Source: an uncultured Eubacterium sp. (GTDB lineage: Bacteria; Bacillota; Clostridia; Lachnospirales; Lachnospiraceae). Taken from it: 64,000 nucleotides of DNA. Location of the stretch: contig CAMUML010000004.1 of NCBI GenBank assembly GCA_947089855.1, positions 56,376-120,375 of the forward strand. The letters are read 5' to 3'. Below are positions 605-63,965 of the stretch, piece after piece (position 1 is the first letter of the stretch; each line of letters begins with the position of its first letter). The notes below the pieces were generated by a model that saw only the letters and a program-made list of their open reading frames with translations, was not told where the DNA came from and made no database searches. Made by a program: the position numbers and the translations under genes.

Positions 605-795
605 GGGCTTTTGTTACTATTCACAGCCAATTTGCTCTTGACAAACATTCTAAGTTATGAGGCTGTAAATAGTAACATTCGCAGGCTCATGAAAAGAATT
701 TGCCTTGCAAATTGGAGCCTGCTCACTCCTGAATCAGCTTGGCAGCCGCCTGAACAGCGGGGTGTTCAGGTGGCTGTGAATAGTAACGGGCTTTT
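605..795. mobile_element. Miniature inverted-repeat element, copy 1 (175 bp plus 8-bp target duplication)
   Basis: The element proper is 613-787. It begins GTTACTATTCACAGCC and ends with the exact reverse complement of these 16 bases. The 8-mer GGGCTTTT flanks it on both sides (605-612, 788-795), as expected of a target-site duplication. Inside are a second inverted end (GGCTGTAAATAGTAAC, 661-676), hairpin 1 (681-688 paired with 715-722, inner stem 697-702/708-713) and hairpin 2 (749-756 paired with 763-770). It encodes no plausible protein. The right duplication ends 1 bp from the gatD stop codon. Related copies lie at 30430-30492 and 63814-63957. An 8-bp duplication would fit DDE transposases such as IS66, IS256 or ISL3 acting in trans, but none is encoded here. 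Confidence 0.85.
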
Positions 796-2861: not shown

Positions 2862-3175
2862 TATGCACCTCACATTCTTTTGTCCTAAATCCTACTGGAA
2901 ACCTGCCTTCCTGCCCCCTGCCATCCACAGGGCTAGTGTAAACAGTACTAGCCTATGAAGAGGCTTCTGCAAAACTTCCAAAAACTTCATGTTCTTTGGC
3001 CTGTTTTTCAGTTTATCTTATATTATAGCCTTAAAGGACATCAAATCTGCAAAAAAAACAAATATCCAGCATTTTTCTCTATCACCAATATAATTTACCA
3101 CGAAAATGGTATTTTTCCAAGCCATACTTTTCTATTCCATATAATGTTGCTATTCACGGCCCAGCACTTTTCCTG
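2862..3175. other. Divergent intergenic region between murT and the glycosyltransferase operon
   Basis: No gene is seen. There is a short hairpin (GGCTAGT at 2931-2937 with ACTAGCC at 2947-2953) upstream of murT, a TATAAT on the minus strand (3022-3027) that could serve murT though no good -35 box matches it, and a solo sequence GTTGCTATTCACGGCC at 3146-3161 that resembles one end of the small mobile element family without a partner end or target duplication. Confidence 0.5.
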
Positions 3176-8343: not shown

Positions 8344-8571
8344 ATGGATTACCAAGAAGGTTACGTTTATCATATTAAAGACGAATATTTTATTAAAGCA
8401 ACCGATCCGAACCTTATGCAAAATAAGGAAAATGGTAACTATCGCCCAACCTTCTACTGTATGCGTGATGAAAAAACGGCTTTGCTTTGGCTGGTTCCTC
8501 TCAGCAGTCGCATTGACAATGTCATTTACTTAAGAAATCCCTCATACAACCTGAACCATAAAAATGCCTAA
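8344..8571 (+). pseudogene. Truncated CptN-like type III toxin (endoribonuclease)
   Basis: A 75-codon frame beginning MDYQEGYVYHIKDEYF and continuing with the tract LMQNKENGNYRPTFYC and PLSSRID matches the first half of CptN/ToxN/AbiQ-type toxins, which normally have about 150-170 residues. After SSRID the sequence no longer resembles the family and stops 19 codons later, so the C-terminal half, including part of the active site, is missing. GGAGAG lies 6 bp before the ATG. The break coincides with an 18-bp sequence (8517-8534) that recurs at 57831-57848, which may mark a rearrangement. The protein is probably inactive. Confidence 0.65.
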
Positions 8572-30421: not shown

Positions 30422-30500
30422 ATTGCCGGGTTACTATTTACAGCCTCATAACTTAGAATATTTGTCAAGAACAAATGGCTGTGAATAGTAACATTGCCGG
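30422..30500. mobile_element. Miniature inverted-repeat element, copy 2 (63 bp plus 8-bp target duplication)
   Basis: The element is 30430-30492, with ends GTTACTATTTACAGCC and GGCTGTGAATAGTAAC (one mismatch). ATTGCCGG flanks it on both sides (30422-30429, 30493-30500). Its reverse complement is nearly identical to the left 64 bp of copy 1 (613-676), so it corresponds to the first module alone, without the hairpin module. The right duplication ends 2 bp from the transglutaminase stop codon. Confidence 0.85.
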
Positions 30501-57815: not shown

Positions 57816-57848
57816 GTTACGATTCACGGCCAATGTCATTTACTTAAG
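57816..57848 (+). repeat. Solo mobile-element end plus shared 18-mer
   Basis: GTTACGATTCACGGCC (57816-57831) resembles the left end of the small mobile elements with one change, but no right end or target duplication was found. It is directly joined to CAATGTCATTTACTTAAG (57831-57848), which also occurs at 8517-8534 at the break in the type III toxin gene. Confidence 0.5.
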
Positions 57849-63805: not shown

Positions 63806-63965
63806 GAATAGTAGTTACTATTCACGGCCTGGGGGCCGCTCTTAGTAACCATTCGGGGCGATATTGGAAGTTTGCTTCGCAAAATCGCCCCTCACCCCTG
63901 CATCATGTTCTCACGGAATGCGCAGTTTATGCGCATTCCTGGCCCTTGAATAGTAACAAATAGTA
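63806..63965. mobile_element. Miniature inverted-repeat element, copy 3 (144 bp, near-perfect target duplication)
   Basis: The element is 63814-63957, from GTTACTATTCACGGCC to CTTGAATAGTAAC. The flanks GAATAGTA and AAATAGTA (63806-63813, 63958-63965) match at 7 of 8 positions. It has the plan of copy 1: an internal end (GGCCGCTCTTAGTAAC), ATTCG, hairpin 1 (63855-63862 with 63884-63891), TCACCCCTGCATCA, hairpin 2 (63915-63924 with 63930-63939), right end. The stems differ in sequence from copy 1 but remain fully paired. A minus-strand frame entering from the right (…YQLNALVI) stops at 63970-63972, 5 bp away. Confidence 0.75.

What the first reader, a model, noticed from the sequence alone, without database searches (positions are those of the whole stretch)
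605..795. Family of small hairpin elements with 16-bp inverted ends and 8-bp target duplications
Seen: copies at 613-787, 30430-30492 and 63814-63957 share ends of the GTTACTATTCACAGCC type. Two are flanked by perfect 8-bp direct repeats (GGGCTTTT, ATTGCCGG) and the third by a 7-of-8 repeat. Solo ends occur at 3146 and 57816. None encodes a transposase. Established: paired inverted ends plus fixed-length target duplication indicate movement by a DDE transposase; 8 bp fits IS66, IS256 or ISL3 relatives. Inference: this is a non-autonomous element family active in this lineage; I know of no description of it.
Basis: partly seen in the sequence, partly recalled or inferred. Interest (0 to 1): 0.85.

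Follow-up and report, generated by a model that had tools for sequence, protein, structure and literature searches.

The report
MITE family of IS66-type transposons
The short hairpin repeats are real: they are small transposons without a transposase gene, present in well over a hundred copies in this gut bacterium, and their ends match those of IS66-type insertion sequences, so they are most likely moved by that kind of transposase; they are a new member of a known kind.

Summary
In detail: three paired copies (613-787, 30430-30492, 63814-63957) with 8/8, 8/8 and 7/8 flanking repeats. The genome has 460 matches to the end motif at up to 2 mismatches, 5 for a reversed control. Of 30 outermost end pairs held from this genome, 26 carry a 7-8/8 flanking repeat. 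Copies nested in copies show filled and empty sites within one genome.

Relatives hold the full element: a 2.2-2.4 kb IS with ends GTTACTTTTCACACCC or GTTACTGTTCACACCC and a divergent IS66-like transposase; 3 of 12 readable copies have a perfect 8-bp duplication. A 160-bp MITE type in this genome has exactly the first of these ends; the window's types share 13-14 of 16 bases. No intact IS66-type partner was found in this assembly.

The 'solo' end at 57816 runs straight into the end of a second, IS4-type element, which makes 9-bp duplications and prefers the ends of these IS66-type elements as target (48 of 69 ends). This is the least expected part.

Verdict: MITEs of the IS66/ISBst12 kind.

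The parts
605..612 (.). left 8-bp target duplication GGGCTTTT of copy A
613..787 (+). MITE subfamily A, 175 bp, perfect 16-bp terminal inverted repeats GTTACTATTCACAGCC
661..676 (-). third, internal end (GTTACTATTTACAGCC) inside copy A; bounds the 64-bp piece that also exists as free subfamily B
788..795 (.). right 8-bp target duplication GGGCTTTT
30422..30429 (.). left 8-bp target duplication ATTGCCGG of copy B
30430..30492 (-). MITE subfamily B, 63 bp hairpin, corresponds to the left 64 bp of A
   Evidence: hairpin -20.5 kcal/mol, z -5.7
30493..30500 (.). right 8-bp target duplication ATTGCCGG
63806..63813 (.). left 8-bp flank GAATAGTA of copy C; by eye the remnant of an older copy's end
63814..63957 (+). 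MITE subfamily C, 144 bp, ends GTTACTATTCACGGCC and GTTACTATTCAAGGGC
   Evidence: hairpin -64 kcal/mol, z -7.6
63958..63965 (.). right 8-bp flank AAATAGTA, 7 of 8 to the left flank
57816..57830 (+). element end GTTACGATTCACGGC, followed directly by the IS4-type element end
57831..57848 (+). end of an IS4-type element, CAATGTCATTTACTTAAG, 15 bp behind the tip of the GTTAC end
3146..3161 (+). single degraded end GTTGCTATTCACGGCC, no partner seen

Best explanation
These are MITEs: short DNA transposons without a gene, whose 16-bp ends are bound and cut by an IS66-type (ISBst12-like) DDE transposase made elsewhere, which inserts them into mostly intergenic sites and leaves an 8-bp duplication. Shown: paired ends, 8-bp duplications, nested insertions, high copy number, and full IS elements in relatives with the same or nearly the same ends and an IS66-like transposase. 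Inferred: that this kind of transposase, supplied in trans, moves these MITEs; that a partner with exactly GTTACTATTCACRGCC ends exists or existed in this lineage; and that the internal third end of A allowed the 63/64-bp piece B to move alone.
For: Own genome: 460 end matches versus 5 in the reversed control. 26 of 30 outermost pairs have a 7-8/8 TSD, 23 of 30 are 8/8; offset controls on all 41 printed pairs give 0 of 123. C inserted in A with TSD TTGACAAA (L009): taking C and one TSD out gives a 175-bp A with 5 differences from the window copy, and A has that 8-mer once. C inside A with TSD CCTGAACA (L029). Full IS: L094/L173 2314 bp; L178, L180 and L181 with 8/8 TSDs CTATTCTT, AACATACA, GATAGATG. 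Transposase of L094: PF03050 at 5.1e-11, above Pfam's cut-off. The 160-bp MITEs L013 and L032 of this genome have the exact 16-bp end GTTACTTTTCACACCC; the window's ends share 13-14 of 16 bases with it. More distant IS66-like relatives L181, L183, L186, L191, L192 (41-53% identity) keep GTTAC..TTCA ends. ISGka4 and ISGst1 (PGAP names) have left ends GTAACTATTCAGCC and 8/8 TSDs. Motion of an ISBst12-group element, ISDge4, with an 8-bp repeat and ends GTGACTACTCAGCA/GTAACTGCTCAGCA is reported in PMC12898284 (passages); two IS66 elements with 8-bp repeats are tabled in PMC3281130 (passages). 26 of 27 tested copies lie outside main ORFs, against 61% of random positions inside.
Against: No intact IS66-type partner with GTTACTATTCACRGCC ends in this assembly (90% complete, 101 contigs) or beside the IS66 genes of 17 other MITE-bearing genomes. 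Of 12 GTTAC-type full IS copies with both flanks readable only 3 have an 8/8 TSD; L094 has a 7-bp repeat and 8 have none. All six GTTAC-type transposases scanned score below NCBIfam's IS66 cut-off. Of 24 IS66-like loci, 13 show two opposed ends, 1 a weak pair, 5 one end and 5 none; some are cut by contig ends. Four of 30 MITE pairs lack a clear TSD. No orthologous empty sites could be compared.
Confidence: 0.85

Rival explanations
1. The MITEs are moved by the IS4-family transposase (element E), because some E copies carry GTTAC ends on both sides.
For: L093 (1823 bp, 450-aa IS4 transposase) has GTTACTGTTCACACC on both sides and an 8/8 TSD AATTTCTG; small E-like derivatives L107 and L208 likewise. 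Of 15 E pairs, 12 have no exact 9-bp duplication of E itself.
Against: Where E sits in a recognisable host copy it starts at CAATG and makes 9-bp duplications inside the GTTAC end: L012/L018 ATTCACGGG, L042 CCCGTGAAT, L223 GTTCACATA. The GTTAC-ended IS66-type elements need no E.
Confidence: 0.08
2. The partner is a DDE transposase of another 8-bp family (IS256, ISL3, IS1595) with similar ends by chance.
For: The exact GTTACTATTCACRGCC partner was not found.
Against: IS66-type full elements share all 16 bp with one MITE subfamily of this genome and 13-14 of 16 with the others, and several distant IS66 relatives keep the same end pattern. IS256, ISL3 and IS1595 were not searched for, so this is not excluded by search.
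Confidence: 0.05
3. Not mobile: conserved hairpins such as terminators or regulatory RNA, kept in place.
For: Strong predicted hairpins; A and B lie within about 6 bp of a stop codon.
Against: 8-bp TSDs in 26 of 30, copies nested in copies, no Rfam match in the window, end matches ranging from 0 to 328 among 13 species of one genus.
Confidence: 0.02

Closest known systems
ISBst12 group of the IS66 family (ISDge4 in PMC12898284; ISGka4/ISGst1 as PGAP names them; PMC8024623 lists one ISBst12-group IS66 copy on plasmid pHTA426, where L217 lies)
   Same: 8-bp duplications, one transposase gene, left ends GTAACTATTCAGCC close to GTTACTATTCACAGCC
   Different: The MITEs have no gene; GTTAC rather than GTAAC; the GTTAC-type transposase L094 is 23-24% identical to ISGka4/ISGst1 in alignment and the type misses NCBIfam's IS66 cut-off
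Bacterial MITEs in general (MITEPsy1, PMC3189936, passages; MITEPye1, PMC11578231, passages)
   Same: Short, no gene, terminal inverted repeats shared with a full IS; MITEPye1 also folds as a hairpin and is mostly intergenic
   Different: MITEPsy1 is tied by its authors to ISPsy2 (family given as 'IS5?') with 4-bp duplications and MITEPye1 to IS1182; here IS66-type with 8 bp, and an internal third end that bounds a smaller free element
Elements that insert into the ends of other transposons, such as IS4321 in Tn21-type ends (recalled; only a search listing seen)
   Same: The IS4-type element E uses another transposon's end as its target
   Different: E has an IS4-family DDE transposase and 9-bp duplications, not an IS110/IS1111 enzyme

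Membership tests
MITE (non-autonomous DDE element) | short, no coding gene | tested here: met
   63, 144, 160 and 175 bp; too short for a transposase gene
MITE (non-autonomous DDE element) | terminal inverted repeats with fixed-length target duplication | tested here: met
   26 of 30 outermost pairs 7-8/8; offset control 0 of 123
MITE (non-autonomous DDE element) | ends shared with an autonomous element | tested here: met
   exact 16 bp for the 160-bp type (L013, L032 versus L094, L178, L180); 13-14 of 16 for the window's types
MITE (non-autonomous DDE element) | observed transposition in trans | not testable with these tools
   needs a trap assay
IS66 / ISBst12 (for the full relatives) | IS66 DDE domain | tested here: met
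   L094: PF03050 43 bits versus cut-off 23.1; D330, D382 and E507 invariant in 7 aligned sequences (catalytic role by analogy, not tested)
IS66 / ISBst12 (for the full relatives) | NCBIfam IS66 equivalog cut-off | tested here: not met
   120-162 bits versus 180 for six GTTAC-type proteins; GTAAC-type L160 and L218 pass
IS66 / ISBst12 (for the full relatives) | 8-bp duplication | tested here: met
   GTTAC-type: 3 of 12 readable copies 8/8, one 7-bp, 8 none. GTAAC-type: 4 of the 5 G004 copies whose loci were held (14 matches in all) and 3 of 4 plasmid copies fetched (41 records matched)
IS66 / ISBst12 (for the full relatives) | single transposase gene, no tnpA/tnpB | tested here: inconclusive
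   one long ORF in L094; small upstream ORFs not examined for tnpA/tnpB homology

The most novel reading that the evidence does not exclude
A three-layer transposon food chain in Lachnospiraceae: a divergent IS66-like subgroup with GTTAC ends feeds a large MITE population, and an IS4-family element has specialised in those ends as landing sites, inserting 15-16 bp from the tip with a 9-bp duplication, and is in turn captured as cargo between two GTTAC ends and moved with 8-bp duplications.
Probability: 0.55. Interest if true: 0.6.

Novelty: new member of a known kind. Interest (0 to 1): 0.42.

Why it matters
It ties a high-copy repeat of gut Lachnospiraceae to a transposase family, so such repeats can be annotated and not mistaken for RNAs or regulatory motifs. 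It points to a GTTAC-ended IS66-like subgroup and gives a testable case of one transposon using another's ends as target.

Tried and rejected
Rfam found nothing in the window. The 12-mer in full text gave one plant transcriptome paper, taken as chance from the listing. The phage collection held nothing similar to A and the plasmid collection nothing similar to C (A was not tried on plasmids nor C on phages). 11 viral contigs hold the exact motif; I judged most to be chance from a rough estimate of my own; L088 is a clear MITE (192 bp, TSD TCATGTAC). A 1622-bp end pair in G016 was a false lead: no TSD and a 488-aa ORF between (that ORF was not scanned). A transposase gene in L031 next to an E end looked IS1634-like by eye; a scan of it failed and I dropped it. 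PF03050 in 17 other genomes matched in 9, and none of the 18 loci held had a GTTACTATTCACRGCC end within 3 mismatches. Orthologous empty sites: flank matches stopped short of the insertion points.

Rows dropped: 41 pairings were printed; I set aside 11 that join an outer end to an internal or neighbouring end, leaving 30; the misses among the 30 are L001, L004, L005 and one pair in L013. A second control there, shuffled pairings, gave 288 of 8200 at 7/8 or better; it includes self-pairings and shared flanks, so I relied on the offset control. The sample is not random: the 30 first-listed exact matches, 20 small contigs and the window. Gene context used 27 of the 30. In one search, 12 of 15 E pairs had no exact duplication; L095, L116, L131 and L134 look like 7-8 of 9 by eye. 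On re-check I changed the count of full IS copies with TSD from 3 of 10 to 3 of 12, and the shared end bases from 11-12 to 13-14 of 16; confidence moved from 0.86 to 0.85 for the first.

Full report
Observation. The three copies are at the stated coordinates with the stated flanking repeats. The window has 10 matches to the 16-mer at up to 3 mismatches, 0.41 expected. The window's genome G000 (4.08 Mb, 101 contigs, 90% complete) has 236 forward and 224 reverse matches at up to 2 mismatches, against 2 and 3 for the pattern read backwards. As A has three ends and B and C two, 460 matches suggest roughly 150-230 elements (my estimate).

Anatomy. There are several subfamilies: A (175 bp), B (63-64 bp), C (143-145 bp) and a 160-bp type with ends GTTACTTTTCACACCC. 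A has a third end at its positions 49-64; B is this 64-bp piece as a free element, in the window with its own duplication; two other B-like pairs, L001 and L005, have no clear duplication. Many C copies also have an inverted end-like stretch about 20 bp behind one end. Predicted RNA hairpins are strong for B and C (z -5.7 and -7.6) and for the two parts of A (z -4.2 and -4.8).

Movement. Of 41 end pairings in held stretches of G000 and the window, 30 are outermost pairs; 26 of 30 have a 7-8/8 direct repeat of 8 bp, 23 of 30 are perfect, and offset controls on all 41 give 0 of 123. In L009 a C element sits in an A element with TSD TTGACAAA; with C and one repeat taken out, the A copy is 175 bp with 5 differences from the window copy, which has that 8-mer once. 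In L029 a C sits in an A with TSD CCTGAACA, and the first 25 bases of A match exactly; further on the match breaks down (50 differences over the length compared), so the full comparison failed there. 26 of 27 copies tested lie outside main ORFs; 61% of random positions in the same stretches lie inside.

Distribution. At up to 1 mismatch the motif is in 16 of 98 genomes, G000 included, among them 8 of 12 other species of the genus, which have from 0 to 37 matches. Exact matches are in 38 of 397 genomes of the family, 35 of 334 genera; a single exact match in a genome may be chance.

The partner. A pattern search in relatives found a 2314-bp element in G005 with ends GTTACTTTTCACACCCACGCCAG and a 575-aa protein; Pfam PF03050, E 5.1e-11. 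Of 24 homologous loci in named genomes, 13 show two opposed ends of this kind, 1 a weak pair, 5 one end, 5 none. L178 (Lachnospiraceae bacterium A4), L180 (Dorea MAG) and L181 (Firmicutes UBA5473) have 8/8 duplications. Of 12 GTTAC-type copies with both flanks readable, 3 have an 8/8 TSD, L094 a 7-bp repeat, 8 none. More distant relatives (41-53% identity) have GTTAC..TTCA ends too. GTAAC-type IS66 copies of G004 (GTAACTGTTCAGCACCCC) have 8/8 TSDs in 4 of the 5 loci held, and ISGka4, ISGst1 and a Planococcus copy also; a Deinococcus copy gave none. The GTTAC-type proteins align with ISGka4/ISGst1 with invariant D330, D382 and E507, but all six scanned stay under NCBIfam's IS66 cut-off, so they look like a divergent subgroup. 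In PMC12898284 (passages) an ISBst12-group element moved and left an 8-bp repeat; PMC3281130 (passages) tables two IS66 elements with 8-bp repeats. In PMC8024623 (passages) the name ISGka4 is used for an ISLre2 element, unlike PGAP.

What is missing. G000 holds only IS66 fragments, and no IS66 gene with a GTTACTATTCACRGCC end beside it was found in 17 other genomes tested. Multi-copy IS elements often drop out of metagenome assemblies, so absence is weak evidence (general knowledge). Other transposase families were not searched in G000, apart from the IS4-type protein.

The second element. CAATGTCATTTACTTAAG ends belong to an IS4-family element (L093, 450 aa; PF01609 1.1e-20, NF033592 140 bits over cut-off 115) and its short derivatives. 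Perfect 9-bp duplications: L012 and L018 ATTCACGGG (the same composite at two sites) and L042 CCCGTGAAT, 3 of 15 pairs; L223 GTTCACATA and L225 AGTTAAACT. All but L225 lie inside GTTAC ends. In loci fetched by this element's own pattern or protein, 48 of 69 ends have the GTTAC head or the matching other side at the junction (31 and 17; 21 have neither), against 0.3% and 0.6% of random positions. In 34 of 35 exact heads, over all loci held at that time, the junction is 15-16 bp from the start of GTTAC. Some copies have GTTAC on both sides with an outer 8-bp TSD (L093, L107), best read as cargo captured between two ends; how it arises is not shown. In G000 itself only fragments of the IS4-type gene were found.

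Literature. Searches listed no paper that by its listing describes IS66-type MITEs. Of the papers listed there I saw passages of PMC9769881, PMC3189936, PMC8024623, PMC12898284, PMC3281130, PMC11578231 and PMC9208149, and the passages describe no such MITEs; the rest I saw as listings only, and subscription papers are not covered.

Noticed in passing
window 57816-57848; L012 1251-1516; L042 5334-6334; L223 1314-3039: IS4-family element and its short derivatives insert into the ends of GTTAC (IS66-type) elements, 15-16 bp from the tip, with 9-bp duplications in the clearest copies.
   Followed up: partly
L093 1491-3313; L107 1324-1636; L208 1734-1823: IS4-type element or a derivative lies between two GTTAC ends with an outer 8-bp duplication, as if captured as cargo.
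   Followed up: partly
window 8517-8534: Solo end CAATGTCATTTACTTAAG of the IS4-type element without a GTTAC end beside it.
   Followed up: no
L225 1360-2948 and L234 1355-2942: Two IS4-type copies sit in the middle of another palindrome (about 26 bp inverted flanks), L225 with 9-bp repeat AGTTAAACT.
   Followed up: no
L031 1300-4000: A 2.1-kb stretch with a transposase-like gene occurs as a partial tandem repeat next to an IS4-type end; may be an assembly artefact.
   Followed up: no
L179 615-4623: 4-kb GTTAC-ended element whose IS66-like gene seems accompanied by a group II intron-like reverse transcriptase ORF (read by eye).
   Followed up: no
L197, L216 and places in G220, G247, G275, G305, G369, G401: A spacing of about 194-200 bp between opposed GTTACTATTCACRGCC ends recurs in several genera, perhaps another widespread MITE type.
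   Followed up: no
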